Below are positions 9,655-54,253 of a DNA stretch of 64,000 nt, in pieces. The stretch covers positions 496,001 through 560,000 of the forward strand of contig WHVD01000028.1 of assembly GCA_015178975.1 (NCBI GenBank). The letters run 5' to 3'. The stretch's first letter is position 1. Every line of letters begins with the position of its first letter. Source of the DNA: Hysterangium stoloniferum. Its lineage: Eukaryota; Basidiomycota; Agaricomycetes; Hysterangiales; Hysterangiaceae. A model generated the notes under the pieces. That model worked only from the letters and a program-made list of their open reading frames with translations, was not told the DNA's origin and did not search any database. The position numbers were made by a program, and so were the translations under genes.

Positions 9655-12600
9655 GCAACCCCACAGACTCCGCACGGGTTGGGGGTTGCATTGCCTCTCT
9701 GCACATTCAAGAGTTTACTCGCCTCAACACATCCACTCTTTCACATTCTGATTCATTTTTCGTTAAACTTATGTCTAATATGATTCCAAAATTCGTTTTT
9801 TCAGCTCTCATAGATTCCGGCTCGACTCATTGTTTTTTAGATACAAGATTCACGGAAAAACATTCTTTGTCAACTTATTCGATAAATCCCATCGCTCTCC
9901 ACCTCTTTGATGGCACAAGTAATTCAGTTGTTACCCAAGCTTGTGATTTACCCATCTGTTTCCCTTGTGGAACATCTCAATTGGTCACTTTCTATGTGAC
10001 CCAGTTAGACTCAAGTTGCTCAGTGGTCCTAGGACATAACTGGCTTACCCACTACAATCCGTTGATTGACTGGATAGCTAACAGTATAACATTCCGGACT
10101 CCCACGGCAGCCGAGGAAACTGTGCCTGTCTCGGCCTCTACGGCACCCATGGCATTCCTGGCACCTGCAGTCTCAAGGACTCCTGTGATCCCTACGGCAC
10201 CAATGGCTTCCCCGGAACCCACGGCACCTCCATCCATTTCTCTGATTAATGCTGCAGCTTTTATTAGGGCTTCAAAAATGGATGGGTCCCAGGCGTTCAC
10301 TATCAACTTAAAAATTGATGAAGCAACTGGTCGTTTTTCAACCCCGGTATCCGAATCTGAGCAAGCCGCTGACCTAGAAGGCGTCCCGGAGAAATATCAT
10401 GACTTCGTGGATGTTTTTAGCAAGTGGAAAGCTGACCGGCTTCCGCCTCACAGAGAATATGACTTAAAAATCGATCTTGAAGATGGTGCCAGCCACCCCT
10501 AGGACATATTTACCCGCTCTCGTCCACGGAACTCTCCGCAATCCGCGATTTCCTGGATGAACATTTGTCCATAGGTTTTATCCGACCCTCAAAGTCTCCT
10601 TTTGGAGCACCTGTTCTGTTTGTCAGAAAAATGGATGGATCTCTTTGACTATGTGTTGATTTTAGAGGACTCAATGCTGTCACCAAGAAGGATAAATATC
10701 CACTCCCACTTATATCTGATCTGCTCGATGCTCTGTGGAATGCCTGGATTTACACCAAAATAGATCTCAAACATGCCTATCATTTGGTCTGGATTGCCGC
10801 AGGCGACGAATGGAAAACCACTTTTAGAACCCGTTATGGGGCCTTTGAGTGGTTGGTGATCCCCTTTGGACTCACCAATGCTCTGTCTGTTTTTCAGTGT
10901 TTTATCAATGACATTTTCTCCGACATGCTCGATGTATGCATAATTGTTTACTTGGACAACATTCTTATCTACTCCAAGAATCCCGCGGAACATGACAAAC
11001 AAGTCCGTGAAGGTCTCCGGAGGCTCAGACAACATGGTTTATTCGCAAATGGTAAAAAATGTACTTTTGACATGGACTCCATGGAATACCTAGGTTTCAT
11101 GATGGGACCCGATGGACTCTGCATGGACGAAACTAAAGTGCAAGTCATCAAAGATTGGCCCGAACCCCGAAAGGTTAAAGACATACAATCCTTCCTCGGC
11201 TTTGCCAATTTTTACAAACGTTTTATCCATGGATATTCCGATATCACGGTACCCCTTACCCATCTTACACATAAGGGTACTCCATGGAATTTTAATGATA
11301 AGTGTCAAAAAGCTTTCAATCTTTTAAAAAATTCATTTTCTACAGCTTCTATTCTGTCGCATTGGAACCGGACTTCCCACTCATTGTTGAAATGGATGCC
11401 TTGGATTATGCACTTGGAGCCATTTTGTCTATCCAGGACCCCGACGGAGAAGTCCACCCCGTGGCTTTTCTGTCCTGGACTTTTACCGGAGCAGAGCTCA
11501 ACTACGACGTTCATGATAAAGAACTTCTGGCAATATTTTCAGCTTTCAAAGTGTGGTGACACTATTTGGAAGGTTCAGGAGCTCCTATTGATGTTGTAAC
11601 AGATCACAAAAACCTGGAATACCTTTCTACCACAAAGCTTTTGACCTGCTGGCAGGCCCACTGGTCTGAATATCTATCTGCCTTCAACATGATTATCTGC
11701 TTTCAACCCAGCCGTCTCGGCGGCAAACCCGACGCTTTAACTAGACGATGGGATGTCTATCCTAAAGAGGGGAGCAATGACTATGCCACGGTAAATCCGC
11801 ACAACCTGAAACCTATTTTCATGAATCAACAACTTACCGCATCAGTCCGCGCAACTTTCCTCATCAATCCCATTGTCCATGGAATTATCATTATGGATAT
11901 CGAGAAGTTACATCAAGATATTCTATCGGCAATTCCACTAGACCCAATTACTAAAGCTCACCTTGACAATCCCGTGGACCCCGATCAACCTCGGTGGTCT
12001 CTTGATCAACATGGTTTCATTAGACTTGACGATCACATCTATGTACCGGACTCCGATGGCCTCCGCCTCAGGATCCTTCAATACAAACATAACCCTCCAC
12101 TTTCAGGACATTTCGGGTACAACAAAACTCTATCATTAATAAGAAGAGAATATACTTGGCCTGGACTCCCTGGATTCGTTAAGCACTGTTGTAAATCTTG
12201 CACTACTTGTCCCTGCTCGAAATCTCAGTGACACAAGCCATATGGCCTTTTGAAACAACTCCTGGTACCGGAACACCCGTGGAATTCTATCTCTATGGAT
12301 TTCATTGAACACCTACTGGATTCCGAAGGGTTTTCCACCATTCTAGTCGTTGTTGACAGATTCTCAAAACAAGGTATATTCATCCCTACTTATGACACAA
12401 TTACATCTGTGTAGCTAGTGGAACCTTTCATTATCCACATATTTTCCAAGCACAGAGTTCCGTCCCACGTGACTTCCGATCGAGGATCAGAGTTTGTGTC
12501 TCACTTCTTTAGATCCCTCAGAAAATCCTTGGCATGACATTACATTTCATGTCCAGACATCACCCAGAAGGTGATGGACAAACCGAACACATCAACCAGA

Positions 12601-13376
12601 CATTGGAACAATACCTCTGCATATATTGCAACTACCAACAGGACAATTGGAAATCCTTGTTACCACTTGCAGAGTTTGCTTACAACAATGCACCCTCGGC
12701 CACTACTTGCATTTCCCCATTCTTTGCAAATAAAGGATATAATCCAAATATTACAGTACATCCAGAACAAAATCTCGCCTCTGTTCACGCTCAAGAGTTC
12801 ACCATGGACCTCCACGAGCTCCACGAGGAACTCTGGACTGCAATATTGTCCACCCAAGAGCAATACCAACATTCAGCAGACAAACACCGGATCCCGCCAC
12901 CCAACTTCAAGATTGGCAACCGTGTTTATGTCAAAGCTCAATTCTTCCGGACTACCCATCCATCAAAGAAGCTTGCTGAAAAATATTTAGGTCGTTTTGA
13001 AATTATTGCACAAGTAGGTTCAGTCTCTTGGACTCTATGGCTTCCAGATAGCATGCACACGGTACACCCGGTATTTCATGTTTCTATGCTAGAACCTTGT
13101 ACTGCTAACACTATCCCGGATCACGTGCAATCTCCGCCTCCTCTGGTCATTATTGACGGAGAACCTGAGTTTGAAATCTCACAGATTTTAGATTCAAAAA
13201 TTGATAAGCATCGACGCACTTGTAAACTGCGTTACTTGGTCAAGTGGGTGGGTTATGAGGGCACCGATGAAGAAACCTCATGGATTTTGGCCACGGAATG
13301 TGGTAATGCCACGGAAATCATTACTGACTTTCATACAGTTTACCTACTCAAACCTGGACCATTATCGTCTCTCTGA
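9643..13376 (+). pseudogene. gypsy-1 pol: protease, RT, RNase H, integrase, chromodomain
   Basis: Protease site [11 protein letters not shown] near 9805. A Pro/Ala/Thr linker follows (SASTAPMAF...), the segment expanded into a minisatellite in gypsy-3. The RT has IDLKHAYH and IVYLDN, so the catalytic YLDD is changed to YLDN. RNase H residues are visible in VEMDALDYALG and VTDHKNLEYL. Integrase has the CKSCTTC zinc residues, SMDFIEH, TSDRGSEF and HPEGDGQTEH. The C-terminal chromodomain includes CKLRYLVKWVGYEGTDEETSW. Stops at about 10648, 11557, 12229 and 12412 and a frame change near 10500 show that it is dead. Confidence 0.9.
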
Positions 13377-13578: not shown

Positions 13579-14606
13579 TCAGTCTACATTTATGGGACTG
13601 TGTTTTTTCCCCACCTCCTCAGCTACCTCCTCAGGAAGCTCCATGACCTCCGCGGCAACCCCGTCCTCATCTGACCCGGCATCCTCGGAACTCCCGATTT
13701 GCGGCTCTTCATACACATAGCCACCATACTTCGCCAGGAACCTCCAAAATTCCTCGCGGAGTCCGCACAGTTCCTTTGCCACTACTATGTGGACTTTGTT
13801 GCTCTTCCGGAGCAACTTGTTTTGGGCCTCGATGCCCTCGGCGATCCGTCCCAGGACTTTGTCCAATCCGGAAAACCAGTCTGACCCGCTTATGTCTCAC
13901 GCCCCAGACCCCACGGCCTGCTCGTGAACTAGTGAGCACCTCGTCTTGAGGTGCGCGCATTGGTAGCAGCCTGGACCCCAGCCAGACTTTCAATTACACT
14001 CTGTGTTCCGGTCATTGCAACCGGAACACTGTGGATCGTTCCGCATTGGAAGATGGACTGGTGCCACCTTCCTTGCCTTCTGTTGTTACGGTCAGTTTCC
14101 ATGGCCATCCCATGGACATGAGGCTTACCTTTTGGGAGCTCTCTGGCTCCCCCTCGGACTCCGACTCCACCTCTGTCACCTTGCGCTGAAAATGCCAAGT
14201 CAAAAAAAAAACAACAAGTTGGAATATTGGGACTTACCTTTCCCGCGACAATCACAGCTCTGTCTGCAGCCACCCACGCCTTCTCCGCGGCCACCCACAC
14301 AGCCTCCTCCTCATCTCTCTGCCTCTGCCTCTCAGCCTCCTCTGTGGCCAATGCCGCCTGGTACTCCCTGTCTAAGGCCTCCTCGGCCTCCCTGGCTTCC
14401 TTTTCTGCTTCTTCACGAAGCTGGCGTTGCTCTTCTCGCCACACCAAGAGTTGGGCCACACTCCAAGTCACCCGATGTGCAGTACCCATGGAAGGCCTGG
14501 CGGTTGGCATCACCCATCTCAGCATTGGCTTTGGTCCCATTTTTTTGATGGGCTCGTCGCATTTGAACCTTACCTTCCAGATCACATGACTCTTTGACAC
14601 ATACAT
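13579..14606 (-). pseudogene. Antisense spliced gene in gypsy-1 (coiled coil + Zn2Cys6-like)
   Basis: Opposite strand to gypsy-1, convergent with pol. Exon 1 ends at 14238 (upstream limit uncertain) and encodes a charged coiled coil (REEQRQLREEAEKEAREAEE). Introns 14186-14237 (52 nt) and 14080-14128 (49 nt) have GT-AG ends. Exon 2 (14129-14185) is acidic (TEVESESEGEPESSQK). Exon 3 (13579-14079) has cysteines spaced C-x2-C-x6-C-x9-C-x2-C-x6-C, then a second conserved block (VLGRIAEGIEAQNKLL, EEFWRFLAKYGGY) and an acidic tail. Only two in-frame TGA codons occur in exon 3, both where CGA is expected. The binuclear zinc cluster is the fungal DNA-binding pattern; DNA binding is inferred. Same layout as 52392-53521 and 24754-25620. 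Confidence 0.7.
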
Positions 14607-14658: not shown

Positions 14659-16050
14659 CAGTAAGCAAAAAAAGGGTTGCAATGTTCAGTAAATTTTAAC
14701 TAAATGCTTATAACTGCAGAAATAAATTAGCTAAAATTAGGAAAAAATATATGTTAGAAAGCCCTGTTTCTGAACTTTTGCATGATAAGCAAGTTTATTC
14801 AAAAATACTCACTCATTGTTGAGATATTAAATATTTTGTACAGGAGTATCATTGCAACCCTTTTTTTGCTTTCATTTTATAAATATAAAGCTATGCATTC
14901 TAGTACTTGGTATGACCTCCTTTAGCCTTGACCACTGCTACAACCCCCCTAGGCATACTTTCAATCAAATTCTGGCACACCTGTGGCATTATTTTGTCCC
15001 ACTCTACTTGTACCCTCTCCCACAGCTCCAATATCCCTCCTGGGGCCCTCTCATGCTCTCCCAGCTTCTTTTTCAGATGATCCCAGAGATGTTCAATAGG
15101 ATTGAGGTCAGGAGACTGTGCTGGCCAAGGAAGGACCTTATATCCATGATCTTCAAACCAAGTTGTAGCTTTCTTGGACTTGTGCTTGGGATCATTATCC
15201 TGCTGGAAGATGATAGTGGAGGGATTCTTGCCATAGAAGCCAAGGCTTTCCTGGAGTTCATCTTGCAGAATCTTGGTGTATAACTCTCCATCCATCCTCC
15301 CATCAATCTTGCATGCATACCCAACTCCCTCCCACAGCATGCAGCCCCACATCATCAGAGATCCACCCCCAAACTTTACAGTCTCCTTCACAAGCCTATC
15401 ACTCAGACCCTCCCCTGCCTTCTTCCAAGCCCACCTCTTCCCATCTGACCCCAGCCTATTGATTTTGGTCTCATCAAACCATACAACAGTCTTCCAGCCC
15501 TCTATAGTCCAATCCAAATGAGCCAGAGCAAAATCCATCCTCTCCTTCCTATGCCTCTTGGTAAGAAGTGGCTTCTTGGCTTTTACCACAGCTTTCATAC
15601 CAGCTAACTTCAGGTGGTTCCGAGTTGTCTGGGATGTGAGAGACTGGTTGATAGTGTTCTGAAGGATCTGGGTGATCTGAGAGGCATTTTCAGCCTTCCC
15701 TGAGGTGATGAGATACTGGGCATAGCGACAGAAAGCTTGGAAGGATGTCCACCAGTAGGCTTCTGCAGGGAAGGACAGTGTTTTCTGCAAAGTCTAGAGA
15801 TGGTACTAATGCGTAGACCAGTGGATGATGAGATCTGGTGGGCAGAATGACCAGAATCCAAGAGGGAGAGGATGTGTTTGTATTTAGAAGTAGAAAGAGG
15901 CTGCATGTTGAATCAACAAGACTGTTGTGGTCTGTTTGTCATGTGTTGAATGTTTTGAACATGTCACATGATCACACAATCAAATACAACCTAACAATGG
16001 ATCAGAAACACCAGTACAACCTGCCCTTATACTGACACTGTTGAAATTTT
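14659..16050 (-). mobile_element. Tc1-1: Tc1/mariner element, right end lost
   Basis: Left end CAGTAAGC follows TA (14657-14658). The left terminal repeat is about 215 bp and its inner edge (14850-14870) is an inverted copy of its outer edge. A Tc1-type transposase lies inside on the minus strand. The matching right terminal repeat is not found, and the element appears to stop near 16050. Confidence 0.8.
14900..15906 (-). pseudogene. Tc1-1 transposase, one frameshift
   Basis: From the ATG at 15906: an N-terminal helix-turn-helix (HILSLLDSGHSAHQISSSTG), GGHPSKLS, then a one-base frame change near 15720. The rest is continuous to 14900 (QYLITSGKAENASQ ... KGGHTKY). Catalytic residues are present: WFDET, QQDNDPKH and [10 protein letters not shown], with 34 residues between second Asp and Glu (DD34E). 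Length about 330 codons, normal for Tc1. The frameshift is taken as decay; the right terminal repeat is also gone. Confidence 0.88.
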
Positions 16051-20956: not shown

Positions 20957-23027
20957 CTAATGTTCACAAAGAGAAAACTGATTTCCTTCAAATGCCGCAG
21001 TCTGATCCACCACAGAATGACTTCTCTCCTTCATCAATTCCAATCTTAACTCTTTCGCCTCCTTCAAACTGATCGGGAAGCCTTCTACGTCATTGATTAC
21101 CTGAGTCCGCAGCTCCGCAGGAAGCGGATCGAGACCACATCCTTTAGCCTCCGATAATGCCTCAGCCCACCAATCCCGCTGCTGGCATGGAACGTTTGCC
21201 GTGGATATAACTCGAATATTTGGATCAACAAGAAACATGGCGAGGATTTTACGATGCCCGGGCTTCGTCGGATCTTCAAGCTTGAACGGCTGGACTTGAT
21301 GCTGAAGAATATTGGGAAATGTCAGAATTCGACCTTCCTTAGTATCGACTGTGCCGATATATTGAACAGCGGGGCCTTCATTTTCGCATCCGAAGACGAC
21401 GGAGAGCCAGTCATGTTCATGTTGGGGGTAATCAATTTTCTCGGTGGCGTAGGTGCTGCTTTGTTGCCGAAATGCTAGGCGGCTGGTTGTGATGTTAATG
21501 CTGTCATAGTAATACAACGCAGTCGCACAGATATGTTCGTTCTTTGGATAAAAATGTTTCTCAATGGGTGAATGATGTATGTGGAAACCTACCAGCTGTC
21601 CCTCTATATGCCATGTTCCGCCTTCATACTCGCATTTCTCTGGCGTTAAGTGAATATTCGCTAGCTTGACAATGATCTGCAGTCCAGTCTGTGAAAAATC
21701 CCTCCTTAAGTCAACCGAAGGATCCGCTTTCGGCGTCTCTGTCCTGGGTTTTTTAGATGCATTCACCTGATACGCCGCAACACTCGGAGGTGTAAATTGC
21801 CCAGGCTCAGGCATCACAACTCTTCTTATCGTCCTGATCCATTCCAGTCTTCGTTCATAGTAATCATCTGCGTTTTCATCTTCTTCCTTTTGTGGGCCTT
21901 CGTTCGCTTCCCAAAGTTCAGGGTCGGGGTCGTATTCAACCTCGGTATAGGAGATGCGGGTGTAGGATGGATAAGGAACACGCAGAGGCGTGAGTGTCAT
22001 GTTCCACAATGGGATGGTGCGCGAGATGAATTTCTCGATTACGCCGTAGAGATTGTGATGTTTATGGGGGTGAATATTATTTATGTAGCTTGTAATTCTG
22101 TCGCGCGGCATTCATTAGCTGGAAAAATATGGGGGGATTTATGAACATACGTGGAACCATCTTCTTTGGAAATGTCAACATCGCAAGGAAGCCATTGAAA
22201 CTTCTGACTGTAAGGCTTAGTCAATACTTCTTGGCGTGATGGGACCCAATTATTCGTAATAGGTACTTGGTGACCGGACGGAGCACTCACGACCTCACCG
22301 CTCCGCAAAGCTCGATGCAATTGGCGAGATTGGTCACACTATAGGGCAGGATGCGAGTACAGCCGTAAACCAAAGGGAACAGAGACGGATGCACTATGTC
22401 AAGGACCTTTTCGTCTGAGTGAGGATGCCAGTCCTTCTGTCGATCGGGAACGTTTTCAAGAGGAACAACGGCAGATATAAGCTCTTTTTTCAACACAGCT
22501 GGGATGACGGTATCAGATTTGACGACGTCGCCATTGTAAATACTGATTGCGCCAGTGGTCTTAAATATGCCAGCCTTGTGCTGAAGTTCGGAAATGCACC
22601 AATTGGCCATTTTCGGCGTAAATTCGGTATCTCCGGTGTAAATTAATTCAGCCTTCCACTTAGACGCAACGGCGTCATCAAAGACCTGAAAAAGTGGAGT
22701 GTGAAGATTAATGGAGACATGAGGGATAATCAGACATGCCTTTACATGCCAGTCGGGTTTATCAGTGAGGTGATTCATCGCTTGCATCATCGTAAACTCC
22801 CGAAGCGTCGTAAGTGGCAAGCTGCTCTGGCTGCTCAACGCGTCTCCCACATAATATATCCTTTTCCCTACCTGACGATATCTCTCTGGTTTAGAGCAGT
22901 TTTGAAATGGTCATCTGTTACGTTTAATTAGGGGTAGGACCGAGATATGCATTAAACTAAGTAACTCACCGGGACAGTGATGTATTGGTAAGCCAAATCC
23001 CGGAAGTTTGATTCGAGAGGCCGCCAT
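20957..23027 (-). CDS. DUF4246 family protein, one-base frameshift
   Basis: Six exons: 23027-22970, 22914-22872, 22821-22746, 22685-22151, 22097-21593 and 21541-20957; introns of 50-60 nt with GT-AG ends. Start MAASRIKLPGFGLP is typical of the family. Family blocks follow in order: TTLREFTMMQAMNHLTDKPDW, DWHPHSDEKVLDIVHPSLFP, YSQKFQWLPCDVD, LQIIVKLANIHLTPEK, NEHICATALYYYDS, LTFPNILQHQVQPF and RKILAMFLVD. Exon lengths total 1802, one short of a multiple of three. The frame breaks near 22300, where CGA-GEVV is expected after CIEL. So the locus is either a recent pseudogene or carries a sequencing error. Biochemical role of DUF4246 is unknown; the HxD...H pattern of the C-terminal part suggests an oxygenase-like fold (inference). 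Confidence 0.85.
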
Positions 23028-24753: not shown

Positions 24754-25620
24754 TTGGAACTCATAGCTGTGCAGATACTTGTGCAGTGTGAGGAGCAATG
24801 GAGAAGATGGGAAGACAAGGAGAAGAAGGCTAGAGAGGAGGTGGTGGCATTGGAAAAAGAGTACCAGGTGGCATTGGGGATGGAGGAAGAAGCAGAGGAG
24901 CAGAGGAGCAGAGGAAGAAGGCAGAGGAGGAGGCGGCAGCCCAGAAGGCAGAGGTGGAAAAAGAGGCAGCCTGGGTGGCCATGGAGCATGCCAAGGCATC
25001 CACGGTAGCTGCAGAAAGGTAAGTCAAAAACATATTAAATTACTTATGTCCTGACTAGTGGCACTGATAGCAAAAAGCCACAGATAATGAGATGGAGTCT
25101 GAAGGGGAACAGGGAAGTCCTCAAAAGGTATGTAAGTGGGTAGTCCTCAGTACCTGTAACATTGTCTTATAATTGACAGAAGACCCAGAAAAATGCTCCA
25201 GCCCAGCTGGAGACCAAAAACAATCTGTGGTGTTCCAGTTGTCATGACTGGAATGTGGATTGTTTCCAGAAGGCCAGTCAGGGCCCAGGTTGCTGGCCTT
25301 GTGTGCACTTGAAGGCAAAGTGCTCACTGATACAGGATGCCTCGGGCTCCAGTTCTCGGGAGGTGGGTGGACATGTGGAAAGGCTGGGGGCTTTGGAGGA
25401 TGTGTTGGGATGGATTGCTGTGGGCATTGAGGCCCAAAATGCCCTGATAGAACATGGCAACAATGTGAGGAGCACACTGGTAGGGTGCCTTCAGGACTTC
25501 TGCAGGTTATTCTGGAAGTTCTTGAAGGATTATAAGGGCTATGAAGAGTCCAATGGTGGGGATTCTGAGGGTTCTGAGGAGATGGACATATCCATGGGGC
25601 CTGAGGAAGGAACTCCATAA
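24754..25620 (+). pseudogene. Antisense spliced gene in gypsy-3 (coiled coil + Zn2Cys6-like)
   Basis: Opposite strand to gypsy-3. Exon 1 (to 25018) encodes a coiled coil (EEQWRRWEDKEKKAREE, then EAAWVAMEHAKASTVAAE in another frame after a small indel). Introns 25019-25070 and 25128-25179 are both 52 nt. Exon 2 (25071-25127) is acidic (NEMESEGEQGSPQK). Exon 3 (25180-25620) is fully open: cysteines C-x2-C-x6-C-x9-C-x2-C-x6-C, then VLGWIAVGIEAQNAL, LFWKFLKDYKGYEE and an acidic tail. The C-terminal half aligns clearly with the gypsy-1 copy. Exon 3 has no stop despite heavy decay of the rest of gypsy-3. Role unknown; the zinc-cluster spacing is typical of fungal DNA-binding proteins. Confidence 0.7.
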
Positions 25621-29474: not shown

Positions 29475-30885
29475 TATTTGATCATCAAGTCTAATAAAAC
29501 CATGCTGGTCTAGGGAACACTGGGGTTGACCAGGGTCCATGGGGTTATTGAGATGTGCCTCTTGATGTAATTTCTCAATATCCATAATGATAACTCCATG
29601 CATGACTGGATGAATGAGGTAAGTAGCACAGACTGATGCAGTAAGTTGAAAATTCATGAATATGGGTTGCAAGTTATGTGGGTTTGCCATGGCATAGTTG
29701 TTACTCCCCTCTTTGGGATAGACATCCCATTGTCTAGTCAACATGTCAGGTTTTCCATGGCCAGGTCAAAAATGAATGATCATATTAAAGGCAGATAGGT
29801 ATTTGGACCACTGGGCTTGCCAGTGGGTCAAAAGCTTCATGGTCAAAAAATATTCCAGGTTTTTGTGATCTGTTACAATATCAACTAGAATTCCTGTGCC
29901 CTCCAAATAGTGTCTCCACACTTTGAAGGCTTCAAAAATTATGAGAAGTTCCTTATCATGGACATCATAATTGAGCTTGGGTCCAGTAAAAGTCCAGGTG
30001 AGAAAAGTGACAGGGTGGATTTCCCTGTCAGAGTCCTGGATAGACAAAATAGCACCCAACACATAATCTGAGGCATCCATTTCAACAATGAGTGGGAGAC
30101 CCAGTTTCCAATGTGAAAGGATGGAAGTTGAAGAAAAAGAATCTTTTAAAAGATTAAAGGTGGCATGACACTTATCATTGAAGTTCCATGGAGCATCCTT
30201 ATGAGTGAGATGAGTAAGGGGAACCATGATCTTGGAATATTCACGGATAAACTGCTGGTAATAATTGGCAAACCCAAGGAAAGATTGTATGTCTTTAACT
30301 TTTTGGGGTTCAGGCCAATCCTTGATGACTTGTACTTTGGTTTTGTCCATCTGGAGTCTGTTGGGTCCCATAATGAAACCCAGGTATTCCATGAAGTCCA
30401 TGTCAAAGGTACATCTTTTACCATTAATGAATAGACCATGTTGCTGGAGTCTCTGGAGAACCTTGCAGACCTGTTTGTTATGTGCCATGTGATCCTCAGA
30501 GTAGATAAGGATGTCATTTAAATAAACAATGACACATACATCAAGCATGTCAGAGAAAATATGAAAAACAGATGGAGCATTGGTTAGCTGGAAAGGCATT
30601 ACCAACCATTCATCTTCAAGGTTGATTTTTAAATCATACTGTCTGTGGGGCAGAAGCCAGTCAGCTTTTCCCTTACTAAAAACATTTGCCTGAAGTCATG
30701 ATATTTCTCCAGGATGCCTTCTAGGTTGGCAATGTGCCAGATTCCAGAGTTTCAAAACATCTGGTTGCTTCATCAACTTTCAAATTGATTGTGAATGCCT
30801 GGGATCCATCCAATTTTGTAGCCCTAATGAAAGCTGCTGTATAAATAAGGGAAATGGATGGGATTACCATGGGTTCTGGGGAAGC
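29475..30885 (-). pseudogene. gypsy-3 pol: RT and RNase H, decayed
   Basis: Minus strand. Fragments of RT (MPFQLTNAPSVF, VIVYLNDILIYSED, so YLDD is YLND), the thumb (EYLGFIMGPNRL, DIQSFLGFANYYQQF), RNase H (VEMDASDYVLGAILS, VTDHKNLEYF) and the RNase H/integrase linker (RQWDVYPKEGSNNYAM). Multiple stops and a lost RT start. Confidence 0.85.
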
Positions 30886-32056
30886 TGGAGGTGCCGTAGA
30901 GGCCACAGGTGCCGTAGAGGCCACAGGTGCCGTAGAGGCCACAGGTGCCGTAGAGGCCACAGGTGCCGTAGAGGCCACAGGTGCCGTAGAGGCCACAGGT
31001 GCCGTAGAGGCCACAGGTGCCGTAGAGGCCACAGGTGCCGTAGAGCCACAGGTGCCGTAGAGGCCACAGGTGCCGTAGAGGCCACAGGTGCCGTAGAGGC
31101 CACAGGTGCCGTAGAGGCCACAGGTGCCGTAGAGGCCACAGGTGCCGTAGAGGCCACAGGTGCCGTAGAGGCCACAGGTGCCGTAGAGGCCACAGGTGCC
31201 GTAGAGGCCACAGGTGCCGTAGAGGCCACAGGTGCCGTAGAGGCACAGGTGCCGTAGAGGCACAGGTGCGTAGAGGCACAGGTGCCGTAGAGGCACAGGT
31301 GCCGTAGAGGCCACAGGTGCGTAGAGGCACAGGTGCCGTAGAGGCACAGGTGCGTAGAGGCACAGGTGCGTAGAGGCACAGGGCGTAGAGGCACAGGTGC
31401 GTAGAGGCACAGGTGCCGTAGAGGCAGGTGCGTAGAGGCCAGGTGCCGTAGAGGCCACAGGTGCCGTAGAGGCACAGGTGCCGTAGAGGCCAGGTGCGTA
31501 GAGGCACAGGTGCGTAGAGGCACAGGTGCGTAGAGGCACAGGTGCGTAGAGGCACAGGTGCGTAGAGGCACAGGTGCGTAGAGGCCACAGGTGCCGTAGA
31601 GGCCACAGGTGCCGTAGAGGCCACAGGTGCCGTAGAGGCCACAGGTGCCGTAGAGGCCACAGGTGCCGTAGAGGCCACAGGTGCCGTAGAGGCACAGGTG
31701 CCGTAGAGCACAGGTGCCGTAGAGGCCACAGGTGCCGTAGAGGCCACAGGTGCCGTAGAGGCCACAGGTGCCGTAGAGGCCACAGGTGCCGTAGAGGCAC
31801 AGGTGCCGTAGAGGCCACAGGTGCCGTAGAGGCCACAGGTGCCGTAGAGGCCACAGGTGCCGTAGAGGCCACAGGTGCCGTAGAGGCCACAGGTGCCGTA
31901 GAGGCCACAGGTAGCCGTAGAGGCCACAGGTACCGTACAGGCCACAGGTACCGTAGAGGCCACAGGTGCCGTACAGGCCACAGGTGCCGTAGAGGCCACA
32001 GGTGCCGTAGAGGCCACAGGTGCCGTAGAGGCCACAGGTGCCGTAGAGGCCACAGG
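30886..32056 (-). repeat. Coding minisatellite, ~65 units of 16-18 bp
   Basis: Tandem array of GGTGCCGTAGAGGCCACA (18 bp). Shorter 17- and 16-bp variants are concentrated at about 31240-31590. In gypsy-3 sense each 18-mer encodes the hexapeptide STAPVA. It lies exactly where gypsy-1 has one copy of a similar Pro/Ala/Thr linker between protease and RT. Because unit lengths vary, all three minus-strand frames stay open over long stretches, so these are not genes. Nearly every unit keeps a CG dinucleotide although the surrounding element has lost most of its CGs. The terminal units continue at 32780-32822 beyond an inserted LTR. Confidence 0.95.
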
Positions 32057-46812: not shown

Positions 46813-47353
46813 TGTTACGACCCGTTCCTGGATGTTTCAATATCTGACTCCCGATCTCCGACTACAGAACATCATAGTTACTGTATCTTCCGCATTTTTC
46901 CCTTGTTCCACATTTGGTAATTTGTCCGTTGACAAGTATTCACTCGTTTGTCTATTATATTCCTGTTTTGGAATATTGTCCCAATATGTCTTATTGTATT
47001 TCCATTTTAAGAATACTTCCGTTTCCATCTTATTATGGTCTCAGTTTGTAGTACAATAATGAGAAGACTTATATTAGTTTCCACGAATTTGTACTTTACC
47101 TTAGATCTGATATCGACTTAGTTTCTTATTCCTTCTTCCATCTATCTGTATGCTCGATATTCAGAACTCTTCGTAACTCTGAATATCCGTATCTTCCACT
47201 GTAAGTCTCACCTCTGAAAGTAAGGACTTTGAGCGTTTGCATAGAGGTGCAGCACATAAGCTGAAGCCAACGTCCTGACCCTATCTGACAGTTCCTGACT
47301 TTCCAGTAACTTTCCGACAGTTCTGGAATACGTTCCCGACATGGCACTTAACA
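46813..47353 (+). mobile_element. gypsy-2 5' LTR (LTR-2)
   Basis: TGTTACGACCC ... CACTTAACA. Contains TTATATTA (47069-47076) as a probable TATA box, the self-primer segment AGATCTGATAT (47103-47113) and the conserved block (47248-47276). Confidence 0.93.
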
Positions 47354-47355
47354 GT

Positions 47356-47366
47356 ATATCAGATCT
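47356..47366 (+). promoter_or_regulatory. Self-complementary primer-binding site of gypsy-2
   Basis: ATATCAGATCT, two bases after the LTR, is the exact 11-nt reverse complement of AGATCTGATAT at 47103-47113, which itself lies 33 bp past the TATA box. This is the Tf1/sushi self-priming layout, and the sequence differs completely from the gypsy-1 pair, so the complementarity has co-varied. Confidence 0.75.
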
Positions 47367-47388
47367 CAACTCTGCGACTTGCTTATCA

Positions 47389-48616
47389 TGGGTCCCAAAC
47401 ACAAAGCTGCCAAAGGACCATCCCAACTTCAATCCCCGTTGCAACTTTACACCACCCAACCTGAAACCCCAAATCAGCTGACAACATCAGCTTCCATCAA
47501 AGAAGTTACTGAGGAAGTTACCGAGGTAACGAAGGATCCCAATATTCCCCACACTTCCAACAACGAAGCAGAAGATCAGCCGGAATCATCGAAAAAAAAT
47601 CTTCCAATGAACCGACTGAAATGTTGTTCATCAACTCCATTGTGAAATTTGCTGACTATTTGAAATCTGCTGAGGATAGTAAAGAATCATCTCGCACCGG
47701 AGTCAAAGAACCCGAACCATTTACTGGCAAGGATCCAAAAAAATTGAAGAATTTCCTTCTCCAATGCCATTTCAGTTTCCGTGATCGACCTGCTGCATTT
47801 AAATCTGACAGTCGAAAAGTCAATTTCACACTCTCTTATCTCAAGGATACTGCTCAAGATTGGTTTGAACCCGGACTATCTGGAATATCCAACGAGACAC
47901 CCGTATGGCTCGATGACTGGGACGCTTTTGTGGAAGAACTGGAAACTAATTTCAGACCTTACGATCAATCCGGCGAAGTGGAAAATGAATTAATGATGCT
48001 TAAGATGAAGGACAATCAATGAGTTTCCGATTATCTCGTCAAGTTCAATACCCTCACCGCATGATGTGGATGGGACGATTCCGCCCTCAGGCACCATTTC
48101 TATATGGGACTTCCGTCACGCCTTAAAGACGAGATCTGCAAAGATGGTCAGCCGAAAACTCTCCAACTCATGCAGATTAAAGCTTAAACATCCGATGCCC
48201 GTTATTGGGAACGAAAAGCCGAGGTCTCTCAAGAGAACCCAATGGAACGTTCTCAGAACAACAAAGTGTCGACTAGCAAGTCTTCTGGCAACAACTCAGG
48301 CAATATCACCGGCAACTCTGGCACTAATACTGGTAAATCAAACTCCAACCGGAAAAAAGACAAGAAATCCAACAAGGATAAACAGTCAACTTCTGACAAA
48401 CCCGACATTTCCCATTTGTTGGGCACTGACAGTAAACTCACTCCGAAGGAGAAACAATGACATATGGACAATGACCTCTGCCTTTCCTGTGGGAAAGGTG
48501 GACACAAGGTTTCAGACTGTACTGTTAAATCCAACTCTTACAAGGCCCGAGTGGCAACTTCCACTACGACTACAACATCTAAGGAAAAACCTGCCACGGA
48601 GTCGAAAAAAGAGTAA
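47389..48616 (+). pseudogene. gypsy-2 gag
   Basis: Start MGPKHKAAKGPSQ. A one-base loss in an A-run at 47592-47599 shifts the frame after ESSKK; the core resumes (KEPEPFTGKDPKKLKNFL, WLDDWDAFVEELETNF, LRHHFYMGLPSRLKD). A zinc knuckle (CLSCGKGGHKVSDC) precedes the end ESKKE and TAA (48614-48616). Stops at 48020, 48062, 48186 and 48458 are three TGA and one TAA where CGA/CAA is expected. Confidence 0.88.
48605..48616 (+). promoter_or_regulatory. Putative -1 frameshift site, gypsy-2
   Basis: TCG AAA AAA GAG TAA in the gag frame; pol (RVSNPPES) is read in -1 from here. Compared with gypsy-1 and gypsy-3 the heptamer is G-AAA-AAA instead of A-AAA-AAA, which may weaken it. Confidence 0.45.
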
Positions 48617-51600
48617 GCAACCCTCCGGAATCTGCATGAACAGAGGGTTGCATTGACTCTCTCCATGTTTCCGAGGTTATCTGTCTCAACGCGTCCGCTC
48701 TCTCTAATCCCGATTCATTATTTGTAAAACTCATCTCTGACTTTCTTGGAAATTTAGTGTTCCGAGCTCTGATAGATTCCGGCTCCACACACTGTTTTGT
48801 AGATACCACCTTTGCCATGAAACATAATCTGAAACTCCATTCTGTTCCCGCAATTTCCTTGCATTTGTTTGACGGCACTAGCAATACGGCAATTACCCAA
48901 GCCTGTGACATGTCTATCCAGTTCCCTTGTGGAACATCCCAGACGGTTACCTTTTTCATAACACAGTTGGACTCTAGCTGTTCAGTAGTTCTTGGATACA
49001 ACTGGCTCACCCGATATAATCCGTTGATTGACTGGGTATTGGGCAGTATTAATTTCCAAATTCCCGACACTTCAGTTCCTCCTGCAGCGTCTCTTCCGGC
49101 CAATGCCTTTTCGGCATCAACGGCATCTCCAGCTTCTATCAAAACCTCCGCACCCCCAAAAATCTCTCTCATCAATGCTTCAGCATTTGTTAGGGTGAGT
49201 AAACTGGGTGGTTCACAGTGTTTTTTGATCAGCTTAAAGTTGATGAAGTATCTGGATGTTTTGCGACTCCAGAACTATCCGAGCTAAAAGCCGACCTGGA
49301 AGGAGTTCCCAAAAAATACCATGATTAACGCAGACATTTTCAGTAAGCAAAAAGCTGACAGGCTTGCACCACATAGGCCCTACGACTTAAAAATCGATAT
49401 TGAGCCCAGTTCAAACCCTCCGTTAGGACCTATTTACCCATTATCCCAATTGGAACTTTCGTCTATTTGGGAGTTCCTGGATGAACATCTGTCGATAGGT
49501 TTTATCCATCCCTCAAAGTCTCCGTATGGAGCACCTGCCCTTTTCGTCAGAAAGAAGGATGGCTCCCTTCGACTCTGCATCGATTTCAGAGGATTAAATT
49601 CCATCACATGGAAAGATAAGTATCCACTTCCACTCGTTACCGATTTACTCGACACCCCACAGAAAGCTCGAATCTACACCAAAATAGACCTCAAACATGC
49701 TTATCATTTAGTTCGAATTGCCAAGGGCGATAAATGGAAAACTGCTTTTCGGACTCGCTATGGATCCTTTGAATGGTTGGTTATGCCGTTCGGCCTTACC
49801 AATGCCCCTTCCGCTTTTCAATGTTTTGTTAATGATATATTTTCCGACATGCTTCATGTATGTGTTATAGTCTATTTGGATGACATTTTGTTATTTTCCA
49901 AGGATCCTGCTCTTCACGACGAACAAGTCTGTGAAGTTTTCCGTAGACTCCGCAAAAACTGTCTTTTCACCAACGGTAAAAAATGTTATTTTGACATGGA
50001 TTCTATTGAATACTTAGGTTTCATTATCAGACCTGAGGGTCTCTGTATGGATGAAACCAAGGTTCAAGTTGTCTGTGATTGGCCCGAACCATGGAAAGTC
50101 AAGGATATTCAGTCATTTTTAGGGTTCACCAACTTTTACCGTCATTTTATTTGGAATTACTCGGATATTACAATACCACTTACCCACCTTACCCGTAAAA
50201 CTGAACCATGGGTCTTTAACGACAAATGCCGCTCTGCTTTCCAGACTTTGAAAAATGCTTTCACTTCCACCCCAATTCTTTCTCATTGGAAACCTGATGT
50301 TCCAATTATTGTGGAAACCGATGCTTCCGATTATGCAATTGCCATGATTCTTTCCATTCAAGATTCTGACGGTGACATTCATCCGGTTGCATTCCTTTCT
50401 CAGACACTTTCAGTGTCCGAACTCAACTATGACGTTCATGATAAGGAACTTTTGGCGATTTTTGAAGCTTTCAAACATTGGCACCATTATCTCGAAGGTT
50501 CTGCAACTCCCGTTGATGTTGTTACTGATCACAAAAATCTCAAATATTTTTCTACCACTAAACTTTTAATCTGCCAGCAAGCCCACTGGTCCAAATTCCT
50601 TTCCACTTTCAACATGATTATCCATTTCTGACCCAGACATCTTGGTGGAAAACCAGATGCCATGACTCGACGATGGGACGTCTATCCTAAAGAGGGGGAA
50701 AGTAACTACGCCATTGTTAATCCACATAACTTGAAACTGGTTTTTACAACGCAACAACTTTCCGCATCTATTCGAGCAACTTCCCTCTACTATCCAATTA
50801 TGCGTAGCATTATGATTATGGACATTGAACAATTACATTAAGATATCCTTTCTGCACTCACTTCCGATCCAGCTCTCAAGCCACACCTAGAAGTTCCTGA
50901 TAATCCTGACCAACCCCGATGGTCACAAGACTCTCAAGGTTTTCTCCGTCTCAATGGATATATCTACGTTCCAGATTCCAACAATCTCCGACTCTGCGTA
51001 CTTCAGTACAAACACAATCATCCAATCTCCGGACATTATGGCATTAACAATACTCTTGGTTTAATACGTAGAGAATATACTTGGCCCAACCTCCGAGATT
51101 TCGTAACCCAGTTCTGTAAGTCATGCACCACCTGCTTACGCTCTAAGACCCAGAGGCATAAGCCGTATGGCCTTCTCAAACAACTCCCAATACCGGAAAA
51201 ACCCTGGAACTCAATTTCCATGGATTTTATCGAACAACTTCCGATGTCTGAAGGCTTTACATCCATTCTAGTTGTTGTGGATCGATTCTCAAAACAAGGC
51301 ATTTTCATACCCACTCATGATACAATCACGTCCTTACAATTAGCGAACTTTTCATTATTCACGTATTTTCCAAACACGGAGTTCCATCTCATGTAACTTC
51401 CAATTGAGGTTCCAAGTTCATCTCCCATTTCTTCCAGGCCCTCGGAAAAGCCCTCGACATGAAACTACACTTCACCTCGGGATATCACCTGGAAGGTGAT
51501 GGACAAATGGAACGTGTAAATCAAACATTGGAACAATATCTCCACATCTATTGCAATTATCAACAGGACAACTGGAAATCCCTTCTTCTGATCATGGAAT

Positions 51601-52300
51601 TTGCCTACAATAACTCTCTGAATGCAACTACCGGTGTCTCTCCTTTTTTCGCCAACAAAGGCTATAATCCGAATCTCACAGTACATTCTGAATGAGATTT
51701 GGCTTCTGTTTGTGCTCAAGAATTTATTACTGACCTCGACAAATTACATCAAGAACTTCGGAAAGCTATTTCTTCCGCACAGGAATATTACCAACGTTCT
51801 GCGGACAAACACAGGATCCCGCCTCCTAATTTTAAAATCGGTGATCAGGTCTTTGTAAAAGCTCAATTCTTCCGTACTACCCGACCTTCTAAAAAACTCA
51901 CTGAGAAATTCTTAGGCCCTTTTGAAATTATAGCACAAGCCAGTTCACTCTCATGGACTCTCCGACTTCCCAATAGTATGCTAGCAGTCCACCCCATTTT
52001 CCACGTTTCCATGTTAGACCCTGTGTTCCTAACAAAATCCTGGAACATATTCAACCTCCATCCCCTCCAGTCATCATTGATGGAGAACCTGAATTTGAAG
52101 TTTCCGAAATTTTGGATTCTAAAATTGACAATCACCGACGTACTTGTAAATTGCTCTATTTAGTCAAATGGGCAGGTTATGAAGGTACCGATGAGGAAAC
52201 TTCATGGATATTGGCCACGGAACTTGGACATGCTATGGAAATTGTTACTGACTTCCACACAGCTTATCCAAGCAAACCCGGACCTTTATCATCACTCTGA
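48605..52300 (+). pseudogene. gypsy-2 pol: protease, RT, RNase H, integrase, chromodomain
   Basis: Protease [13 protein letters not shown] near 48765; RT from about 49390 with IDLKHAYH and an intact YLDD (IVYLDDILLFSKD); RNase H residues in VETDASDYAIA and DVHDKELLAIFEAF; integrase zinc residues near 51110-51140 (CKSCTTC), SMDFIEQLP, a damaged second-Asp region (SN*GSKF for SDRGSKF), and HLEGDGQMER. Chromodomain CKLLYLVKWAGYEGTDEETSW near 52140-52220. One large frame (49321-50631) covers RT-RNase H. Stops near 50628, 51405 and 51693 and a frameshift near 52020 disable it. Confidence 0.92.
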
Positions 52301-52391
52301 CCTTTTTCCAGTTTTCTTTCTGTTCAGTTTCCGATACTTCCGACATCACACTCGTTCTTTGAAATCATACAAGTCAAAAAAATATTTGCAA

Positions 52392-53521
52392 TTATTTCAA
52401 TGTTTCTGACACCCCAAATTCTCCTTCTGCTTCTACTCCCGTATCATCCACAATCTCCACACTTTCCACCATATCCTGTACCTCCTCATCTTCACTTTCC
52501 AGCCCCTTTCCTGACTCCCACATTTTCTCGACACATTCCACCAACAGATCATTAGGCTGTTCCCGTGCCTTATCGGAAAACCTCTCAGATACTGTGATAA
52601 CACCAATGCTAACCATTACCTTCTCCAGAAACTTGTTTTGCCTCCGAAAGTTCCAGATCAACGAACGGAAACCCTTTTCCTGGATATCATTATGGCAATC
52701 CAGTGTGTCCCACATTTTCATGACTTCCATCCCAATAAAAACCAACATGTCGACAGTGTCCTTGAGGAGCCCAATGCCCATATTATCCGTGTTCGGCACC
52801 TCAGTTTCCGCAGTCTTAGCTGCTCCCGAACCTTCCACATCATTAGTTTTCTGAGCCTTCTCACCTTTTGGAACCCTTTTCGCAGCGAGAGTGCACGGAA
52901 GTTTGAGAACCGCACAGGGATAGCAAGTTCCACCCCATTTTACCTTCTGTTTCCAACACGTCATACTCTGTATGGAACATCGATAACACGGAGTGTCGTG
53001 GACGACTTCCATCCATTCTGGAGCCTTGACCTTTTGCTTCTGTTTCGGAAGTTAATCAATTACCGATCTTGTGCAGAGGCACTTACTTTAGGACTTGAAG
53101 GCCCAGCTTCTCCCTCTACCTCCATGGCTTTTCGCTGTACCCAATAGTTATCGTTTGGAACCACGGAAATTTATGGATCGAACTTACCTTTCCTTCCCTT
53201 ATCTCCTCACGTTTTTCTGCCACCTCAGACTCCTGCTGTAATCTTTTGGCCTCTTCCTTCTTCTTCTGAGCCTCCGCCATTTTCCGTATCCACACTTCTT
53301 TTTCCACCTTCACTTGCTCCAACTCCCATTTTTCCACCTCTTCCACCTCTTTCAACTCCCGCATCAAAACCTTTTCCTCCTCCTCTTGTCGCCATTTCAT
53401 TTCCTCCATCCTCTGTCATTTTTGTTGAAGTTCTGCAACCTTCGACATTTTTTGAAGAGCAGAAATTTTGGCGTCTGAATCTTCCGGGGTAGTGATGAAT
53501 AATGGCCGATGAATCGACATG
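52392..53521 (-). CDS. Antisense spliced gene in gypsy-2 (coiled coil + Zn2Cys6-like)
   Basis: Convergent with pol (chromodomain stop at 52300); its start lies 185 bp before the 3' LTR. Exons 53521-53188, 53134-53087 and 53039-52392; introns 53 and 47 nt, all phase 0. Exon 1: MSIHRPLFITTPEDSDAK, then a long charged coiled coil (EVEEVEKWELEQVKVEKEVW). Exon 2: acidic (MEVEGEAGPSSPK). Exon 3: cysteines C-x2-C-x6-C-x10-C-x2-C-x6-C (CYRCSIQSMTCW ... TCYPCAVLKLPC), a helical region (FRRQNKFLEKVMVSIGV) and an acidic tail. A single in-frame TGA (53416-53418) fits CGA decay; otherwise open for about 340 codons. Zinc-cluster DNA binding is inferred; could regulate the element or its host. Not known to me as a described retrotransposon component. 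Confidence 0.72.
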
Positions 53522-53705
53522 CAAGTTGTGGATAAAGAAACAAGAACGTTAATTTGAATATTTGGAGGTTTTTATACTCAGAACAACAGCTGAAAATCTC
53601 ACCTCCAGAATTGCATAAATTTCACGACACATAATAATCAGCCGTCGCTTCAATCACTCAGTACCTAATCACCTCTATGGGACTTTGGCCTAACAGGGGG
53701 GTACT

Positions 53706-54253
53706 GTTACGACCCATTCCCAGATGTTTCAATATCTGACTCCCAATTTCCGACTACGGAACATCATAGTTACCGTATCTTCCGCATTCTTCCCTTGTTC
53801 CGCATTTGGTAATTTGTCCGTTGACAAGTATTCACTCATTTGTCTATTATATTCCCGTTTCAGAATATTGTCTCCCCGATATGTCTCATTGTACTTCCGT
53901 TTTAAGAATACTTCCATTTCCATCTTATTACTGTATGGTCTCAGTTTGTAGTACAATAATGAAAAGACTTATATTAGTTTCCGCGAATTTGTACTTTACC
54001 TTAGATCTGATATCGACTTAGTTTCTTATTCCTTCTTCCATCTTTCTGTACACTCAATATTCAGAACTCTTCGGAACTCTGAATATCTGTATCTTCCATT
54101 GTAAGTCTCACCTCTGAAATTAAGGACTTTGAGCATTTGCATAGAGGCACAGCACATAAGCTGAAGCCAACGTCCTGACCCTATCTGACAGTTCCCGACT
54201 TTCTGGTGACTTTCCAATAGTTCCAGAATAAGTTCCCGACACGGCACTTAACA
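53706..54253 (+). mobile_element. gypsy-2 3' LTR
   Basis: 548 bp, TGTTACGACCC ... CACTTAACA, same features as the 5' copy. Differences are mostly transitions plus a short insertion (CCCCGATAT near 53875). Preceded by a purine run GGGGGG at 53697-53702 that fits a polypurine tract. Confidence 0.93.

What the first reader, a model, noticed from the sequence alone, without database searches (positions are those of the whole stretch)
52392..53521. Opposite-strand spliced gene with a Zn2Cys6-type cysteine motif inside Ty3/gypsy elements
Three clearly different gypsy families in the window (gypsy-1 13579-14606 minus; gypsy-3 24754-25620 plus; gypsy-2 52392-53521 minus) each carry a gene on the strand opposite to gag-pol, between chromodomain and 3' LTR. 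All encode coiled coil, then a short acidic segment, then C-x2-C-x6-C-x9/10-C-x2-C-x6-C, then a helical domain and acidic tail. The cysteine spacing is that of fungal binuclear-cluster DNA-binding domains. Known antisense genes of plant gypsy elements are precedents for the position, but I know of no described zinc-cluster gene of this kind in fungal elements. It could regulate the element, target integration or counter host silencing.
Basis: partly seen in the sequence, partly recalled or inferred. Interest (0 to 1): 0.93.

Follow-up and report, generated by a model that had tools for sequence, protein, structure and literature searches.

The report
Antisense zinc-cluster gene in fungal retrotransposons
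Jumping genes that are common in the genome of a truffle-like fungus carry a backwards-facing, spliced gene for a probable zinc-containing DNA-binding protein, and selection has conserved that protein, which suggests the elements carry their own regulator.

Summary
The window lies in Hysterangium stoloniferum. Its three gypsy elements each carry a three-exon gene antisense to gag-pol, beyond the pol 3' end, for coiled coil / acidic stretch / C-x2-C-x6-C-x9-10-C-x2-C-x6-C / long helix / acidic tail. All three window copies are decayed, but the gene is real. Genome searches reported 150, 150 and 151 matches from 718, 1164 and 565 candidates, the last for a third, divergent type with the same layout. 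Pol lies antisense next to the gene in 49 of 60 loci and in 14 of 16 of the third type. Splice sites are conserved. Third codon positions vary like introns, first and second three to six times less. Six cysteines and one lysine are the conserved core. A TATA box precedes the start codon in 44 of 50 copies. The zinc part resembles, without statistical proof, fungal Zn2Cys6 domains. Best reading: an element-encoded nuclear DNA-binding regulator with its own promoter. Antisense genes of gypsy elements are known in plants and Botrytis (brtn); I found no zinc-cluster version in print (nine searches).

The parts
46813..54253 (+). gypsy-2, Ty3/gypsy LTR retrotransposon with 5-base target-site duplication ACAGA
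   Evidence: LTR pair 91% identical; duplication read output
46813..47353 (+). 5' LTR of gypsy-2
47621..48022 (+). gag capsid part of gypsy-2
   Evidence: PF16297, PF19259, PF03732
48757..49287 (+). aspartic protease of gypsy-2
   Evidence: RVP_2 E 4e-8
49321..50631 (+). reverse transcriptase and RNase H of gypsy-2
   Evidence: RVT_1 E 5e-34, RT_RNaseH
51699..52163 (+). C-terminal part of pol (Tf2-1-like SH3) of gypsy-2
   Evidence: PF24626 E 3e-17
53705..54253 (+). 3' LTR of gypsy-2
53570..53576 (-). TATA box of the antisense gene, 56 bases before the ATG, between the gene and the 3' LTR
   Evidence: other copies
53188..53520 (-). antisense gene exon 1 (coiled-coil-like by eye; one TGA in this copy)
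53087..53134 (-). antisense gene exon 2 (acidic stretch ending GPSSPK)
52392..53039 (-). antisense gene exon 3: zinc cluster, long helix, acidic tail; open
12534..13376 (+). gypsy-1 integrase C-terminus with SH3 and chromodomain
   Evidence: PF24626, PF00385 E 1.4e-7
14238..14540 (-). gypsy-1 antisense gene exon 1
14129..14185 (-). gypsy-1 antisense gene exon 2
13579..14079 (-). gypsy-1 antisense gene exon 3 (two stops)
24754..25018 (+). gypsy-3 antisense gene, decayed exon 1 (no conserved start, frameshift, stop)
25071..25127 (+). gypsy-3 antisense gene exon 2
25180..25620 (+). gypsy-3 antisense gene exon 3, open, antisense to pol on the minus strand
   Evidence: (locus L034)

Best explanation
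It is an accessory gene of a large, long-lived lineage of chromodomain Ty3/gypsy elements. Shown: it lies antisense beyond the pol 3' end (before the 3' LTR where LTRs were found), has two phase-0 introns with conserved splice sites, a TATA box at a near-constant distance from its ATG, a conserved six-cysteine core, a predicted long helix, and purifying selection on the spliced protein. Inferred: (a) it is transcribed from its own promoter, not from the LTR; (b) because its introns point against the element's RNA they are not removed during retrotransposition, so the antisense orientation lets an intron-bearing gene live in a retroelement; (c) the protein binds two zinc ions, dimerises through its helix and enters the nucleus; (d) it binds DNA, most likely the element's own LTR or promoter region, and tunes the element's transcription or chromatin, as the antisense-encoded HBZ does for HTLV-1 (recalled, and as mentioned in passages of PMC11963269).
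For: Copies: 150, 150 and 151 matches reported from 718, 1164 and 565 first-look candidates (overlap between lists not checked by script). Context: pol C-terminus antisense directly downstream in 49 of 60 loci, these being the 30 best matches of each of two searches, and in 14 of 16 places picked by hand down the list. Splice sites: G2 GT 28/29, AG 27/29, GT 29/29, AG 29/30 (counted); G3 28/32, 25/32 (2 gaps), 30/32, 31/32; G4 8/8, 7/7, 7/7, 7/7 of those with letters among nine. Constraint: informative non-CpG columns 66/157 at third and 24/348 at first plus second positions of exon 3, 36/96 against 23/195 in exons 1-2, 25/67 in introns (Fisher 4e-20 and 8e-7; introns and third positions do not differ, p 0.68). 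The variable codon position changes phase from exon to exon as splicing demands. dN/dS, means of dS bins: 0.27, 0.21, 0.17 for 427 of 434 G2 pairs, 0.53 to 0.22 in 441 G3 pairs, 0.16 to 0.35 in 29 G4 pairs. Cysteines 64/71, 64/70, 68/70, 67/69, 68/71, 69/71; Lys 71/71. TATA in 44 of 50 copies with a found start, of 71 examined. Long helix with pLDDT blocks of 87-98. All 13 PDB matches of the gypsy-2 model are Zn2Cys6 proteins (family of most entries recalled).
Confidence: 0.5

Rival explanations
1. Anti-silencing factor: the protein frees the element from host DNA methylation or heterochromatin, like the VANC proteins of plant Mutator-like elements (recalled).
For: The copies bear strong CpG-to-TpG decay: at 91 CG sites of the G2 gene, 1086 cells CG, 1385 TG or CA, 173 other, as expected if the elements are methylated. 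The protein changes fast between families (77% different between G2 and G3 against 28% for the pol C-terminus), as in an arms race.
Against: Decay suggests silencing, not escape from it. No similarity to a known anti-silencing protein was found in Pfam or NCBIfam. dN/dS was below 1 in every pair counted.
Confidence: 0.2
2. Targeting or integration cofactor: a nuclear DNA-binding protein that guides or imports the integration complex.
For: DNA-binding-like cluster with a helix that may dimerise; zinc types follow pol lineages broadly.
Against: A chromodomain that could serve targeting is already present in gypsy-1. Insertion-site bias was not examined.
Confidence: 0.12
3. The antisense RNA is what matters (double-stranded RNA control); the protein is incidental.
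For: The antisense transcript would overlap the sense RNA 3' end; such RNA roles are discussed for plant elements (PMC7264820, parts 1 and 2 of 3 read).
Against: First and second codon positions are three to six times more conserved than third positions and introns, across three exons in three different phases. RNA-only function does not predict this.
Confidence: 0.05
4. Structural protein of the particle, such as a second nucleocapsid or Gag partner (coiled coil plus zinc motif).
For: Coiled-coil-like exon 1 and long helix in exon 3; zinc motif.
Against: Gag has its own CCHC knuckle: intact pattern in L064, L031, L033, L067 and window gypsy-2; decayed or with a stop in L065, window gypsy-1 and gypsy-3 (all eight looked at). 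A separate TATA box suits a regulator better.
Confidence: 0.08
5. A host gene captured many times, with free host copies as the source.
For: Introns show an origin as a spliced gene.
Against: One intron layout in all groups and a pol tree in which G2 is one clade fit one old capture. None of the 76 loci looked at was shown to be a free gene, though 8 of the 60 and 2 of the 16 stayed unresolved.
Confidence: 0.05

Closest known systems
Antisense additional ORFs of plant gypsy elements (Grande gene23, RIRE2, Retand TRP28, PvRetro13)
   Same: [quoted passage not shown] own promoter and nuclear protein reported for Grande; DNA binding predicted for TRP28 (PMC7264820 parts 1 and 2 read; PMC11963269 passages)
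   Different: Different protein: no TRP28 or SMC match in Pfam here; fungal chromodomain elements; two conserved introns
brtn of Boty-like elements in Botrytis cinerea
   Same: Antisense gene in a fungal gypsy element with chromodomain (passages in PMC8365987 and PMC4227169, PMC7264820 part 1)
   Different: Ascomycete; I saw neither the original paper nor its sequence, so homology is untested
Fungal Zn2Cys6 binuclear cluster transcription factors (PPR1, PUT3, Leu3, Gal4)
   Same: Cysteine spacing; cluster followed by linker and long helix (layout of the known proteins recalled); acidic tail; all 13 Foldseek matches of one model
   Different: Scores seen lie below the family cut-off; basic recognition helix mostly missing; extra N-terminal coiled-coil-like exon; encoded by a retroelement
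HBZ of HTLV-1
   Same: Antisense, spliced, nuclear regulator (recalled; abstract start of PMC2099442 and passages of PMC11963269)
   Different: Leucine zipper (recalled), promoter in the 3' LTR; here the TATA box lies outside the LTR and the motif is zinc-like; no homology claimed

Membership tests
Antisense additional ORF (aORF-3R) of LTR retrotransposons | between pol and 3' LTR, opposite strand | tested here: met
   49 of 60 and 14 of 16 loci with pol C-terminus antisense downstream; LTR pairs shown only for gypsy-2 and L064, with a partial pair in L065
Antisense additional ORF (aORF-3R) of LTR retrotransposons | kept in many copies with coding constraint | tested here: met
   dN/dS and codon-position tests
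Fungal Zn2Cys6 cluster (PF00172) | six cysteines in C-x2-C-x6-C-xn-C-x2-C-x6-C (spacing recalled) | tested here: met
Fungal Zn2Cys6 cluster (PF00172) | Pfam score over the 21-bit cut-off | tested here: not met
   18 of 30 members match weakly, best E 0.0026; scores seen 7.1 to 16.1 bits; the bits of the best member were not seen
Fungal Zn2Cys6 cluster (PF00172) | binuclear cluster fold | tested here: inconclusive
   [not shown]
Fungal Zn2Cys6 cluster (PF00172) | basic recognition helix between second and third cysteine (recalled) | tested here: not met
   that stretch is not basic in most copies printed (G4 copies have one or two basic residues); the invariant Lys lies in the second half
Fungal Zn2Cys6 cluster (PF00172) | binds two zinc ions and DNA | not testable with these tools
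   needs protein
Retand TRP28 (PF04195) | Pfam match to PF04195 | tested here: not met
   not among the families listed
brtn of Boty-like elements | sequence homology | not testable with these tools
   brtn sequence not seen; only mentions read

The most novel reading that the evidence does not exclude
The element lineage carries a zinc cluster whose two pseudo-symmetric CX2CX6C halves are used in swapped order: the DNA-reading lysine sits after the fifth instead of the second cysteine. Weak Pfam matches align the first half to profile positions 15-32 (the second half of the canonical cluster; which half is which is recalled) in gypsy-3, L064, L065, L074, L041 and L035, and, in L056, the second half to positions 2-18. 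In a small test without cysteine columns, trained on nine host clusters, the second half looked more like the canonical DNA-reading half in 16 of 16 G3 and 8 of 8 G4 copies but only 3 of 20 G2 copies (44 of 71 copies had both halves). An earlier training set that mixed in tandem clusters gave 16 of 16, 4 of 8 and 0 of 20. If true, these elements hold a rearranged DNA-binding module that regulates each family's own LTR.
Probability: 0.2. Interest if true: 0.8.

Novelty: new variant of a known kind. Interest (0 to 1): 0.64.

Why it matters
The antisense genes of plant gypsy elements have no established function (PMC7264820, parts 1 and 2 read). Here the protein has a recognisable, testable metal-binding core, a likely promoter, conserved introns and strong selection, in very many copies and three divergent groups of one genome. 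It would make the question 'what do antisense genes do for retroelements' directly testable in a fungus, and the orientation argument explains how an intron-bearing gene can survive in an element that copies itself through RNA.

Tried and rejected
Relatives outside this species: three protein searches and one viral-contig scan gave only three H. stoloniferum gene models. One search allowed E up to 10 and gave none, not even those three, so its reach is limited. This does not show absence elsewhere: the search needs shared exact words and its coverage of fungi is unknown to me. From memory, basidiomycete databases hold coiled-coil hypothetical proteins with similar cysteine motifs; this is a lead, untested.

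No solved structure by sequence (profile search: Leu3 only at E 0.49, ranked fifth of ten, the other nine being mostly coiled-coil-type matches). NCBIfam nothing convincing. LTR binding sites through CGG counts: not specific. Nuclear signal: inconsistent in G3. Pol and zinc distances within groups: no correlation, so within-group co-inheritance is not shown. Half-swap idea: holds in G3, in G4 with one of two training sets, not in G2. Nucleocapsid in trans: disfavoured by the CCHC knuckle in Gag. VIA look at the L064 model had nothing to compare.

Papers: nine searches showed no zinc-cluster antisense gene in fungal elements in their listings. The library lacks most subscription journals, and the brtn paper itself was not seen.

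Full report
What is there. The window is G000:C201:496001-560000 of a 111-Mb assembly. Three annotated proteins of Hysterangium stoloniferum matched my profile; two of them lie on contigs of 1,976,920 and 1,501,424 bases, the lengths of C334 and C2 of this assembly, so the species is taken to be H. stoloniferum, an agaricomycete of the order Hysterangiales. gypsy-2 spans 46813-54253, with LTRs at 46813-47353 and 53705-54253, 91% identical, and ACAGA on both sides. Gag, protease, RT-RNase H and the C-terminal SH3 part of pol are on the plus strand; a chromodomain is detected in gypsy-1. On the minus strand lies the three-exon gene. The window copies are decayed: one stop in gypsy-2, two in gypsy-1, a lost start, frameshift and stop in gypsy-3. 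GT and AG are present at both introns in all three.

It is a large gene family. Exon-3 searches of the genome reported 150 matches of 718 candidates for gypsy-2, 150 of 1164 for gypsy-3 and 151 of 565 for a divergent type found in locus L066. Only the best candidates were scored, so these are lower bounds, and overlap among the lists was not checked by script. I call the gypsy-2 type G2, the gypsy-3/gypsy-1/L064 type G3 and the L066 minus-strand type G4. One search contains 21 places with the same score (116.6 bits) and open frames of 170 residues, and one element of that set (L064) has LTRs 99.8% identical over 542 bases, so amplification was recent in places. By the script, 3 of 30 G2 copies had neither stop nor frameshift in any exon.

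Where it sits. The 60 loci are the 30 best matches. In 49 of them the pol C-terminus lies directly downstream on the opposite strand. Of the 11 others: L004 has RT and integrase there but lacks the pol end. L012 and L024 keep a stub reaching past the pol end. L044's same-strand pol belongs to a neighbouring element, which led to the G4 gene on the opposite strand. L029 and L030 are 99.9% identical over 3.6 kb and probably one insertion assembled twice. L029, L030, L037, L038, L042, L053 and L061 have no antisense pol directly downstream in the fetched stretch, and similarity to the copies I compared ends within or soon after the gene. For G4, 16 places picked by hand down the list gave 14 with antisense pol. 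No free host gene was shown, but eight of the 60 (L029, L030, L037, L038, L042, L044, L053, L061) and two of the 16 are unresolved.

Gene structure. All three groups have exon 1 (coiled-coil-like by eye), a short acidic exon 2 (48-84 bases in most copies) mostly ending in SPK or SPQK, and exon 3, with phase-0 introns mostly of 44-55 bases. Splice dinucleotides: G2 28/29, 27/29, 29/29, 29/30 (counted; one copy lacks the 5' part); G3 28/32, 25/32 with two gaps, 30/32, 31/32; G4 8/8, 7/7, 7/7, 7/7 of those with letters, of nine copies. Because the introns lie against the element's RNA they should not be spliced from it, so this orientation is the one in which an intron-bearing gene can persist; this is inference from how retroelements copy.

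Promoter. A TATAWAW motif lies 40-110 bases before the ATG in 44 of the 50 copies for which I found a start, of 71 examined (G2 26 of 29, G3 16 of 19, G4 2 of 2). In four examples it lies at -56 to -60 (31 to 60 of 5000 mononucleotide shuffles per example put one at -50 to -65). The LTR border lies further out, at -173 to -210 in the three examples where it was recognised. So the likely core promoter is internal to the element, not in the LTR. The gypsy-1 copy has lost it.

Selection. Among 30 G2 copies, leaving out columns with CpG in any copy and columns with fewer than 20 letters, informative columns are 66/157 at third positions and 24/348 at first plus second positions of exon 3; 36/96 and 23/195 in exons 1-2; 25/67 in introns without their splice motifs. 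Third positions do not differ from introns (Fisher p 0.68) while first plus second positions differ from third (4e-20 and 8e-7; columns are not fully independent because copies are related). The three exons have different phases on the genome and all sense frames of exons 1 and 3 hold stops in the window copy, so only the spliced antisense protein explains the pattern. Mean dN/dS by dS bin falls from 0.49 (6 pairs with lowest dS) to 0.17 in G2 (and 0.14 in one last pair), 0.53 to 0.22 in G3, and lies at 0.16-0.35 in G4; no counted pair exceeded 0.96. This is as expected for selection in active lineages followed by neutral decay. CpG sites have decayed strongly to TG or CA.

Evolution. In a tree of the pol C-terminus (46 sequences, midpoint root, no formal test), all 25 G2 elements form one clade, the single G4 element is its sister, and both are nested among the G3 elements, which include gypsy-1. 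Between G2 and G3 the zinc protein differs at 77% of positions, the pol C-terminus at 28%; within G3 the figures are 49% and 26%. Over all pairs the two distances correlate (r 0.78), within groups they do not (r 0.12 and -0.02). This fits one old acquisition followed by fast change, with exchange between elements possible.

Reading. The best-supported account is an element-encoded nuclear DNA-binding regulator made from its own antisense promoter. Which DNA it binds and whether it raises or lowers the element's activity are not shown. Antisense accessory genes are known in plant gypsy elements and in Botrytis (PMC7264820, parts 1 and 2 of 3 read; PMC11963269, PMC8365987 and PMC4227169, passages only), so the class is known and this is a new, well-supported variant of it.

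Noticed in passing
L086 (G000:C56:39050-40000), L104, L121; also places on C309, C308, C209, C37, C85, C533 listed: A multi-copy gene with several Zn2Cys6-like clusters in tandem in one reading frame; ordinary Zn2Cys6 proteins have one (recalled).
   Followed up: partly
window 20957-22111 minus: Probable host gene with a DUF4246 domain (E 1.4e-104) among the transposons.
   Followed up: no
window 14900-15790 minus: Tc1/mariner-type transposase (HTH_Tnp_Tc3_2 and DDE_3) just upstream of the gypsy-1 antisense gene, perhaps inserted there.
   Followed up: no
window 30779-31912 and beyond: Array of 18-base tandem repeats within the stretch of the gypsy-3 element.
   Followed up: no
L064, L065, L066 minus, L073, between the LTR border and the TATA box of the antisense gene: Shared block around GTGTCAAA..GTCATGTGA in these G3 and G4 copies, a candidate control site; not seen in the G2 example L018 or in L041.
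   Followed up: no
L029 and L030 (G000:C317 and C328): 3.6 kb 99.9% identical on two short contigs: probably one insertion assembled twice, so copy counts may be slightly inflated.
   Followed up: no
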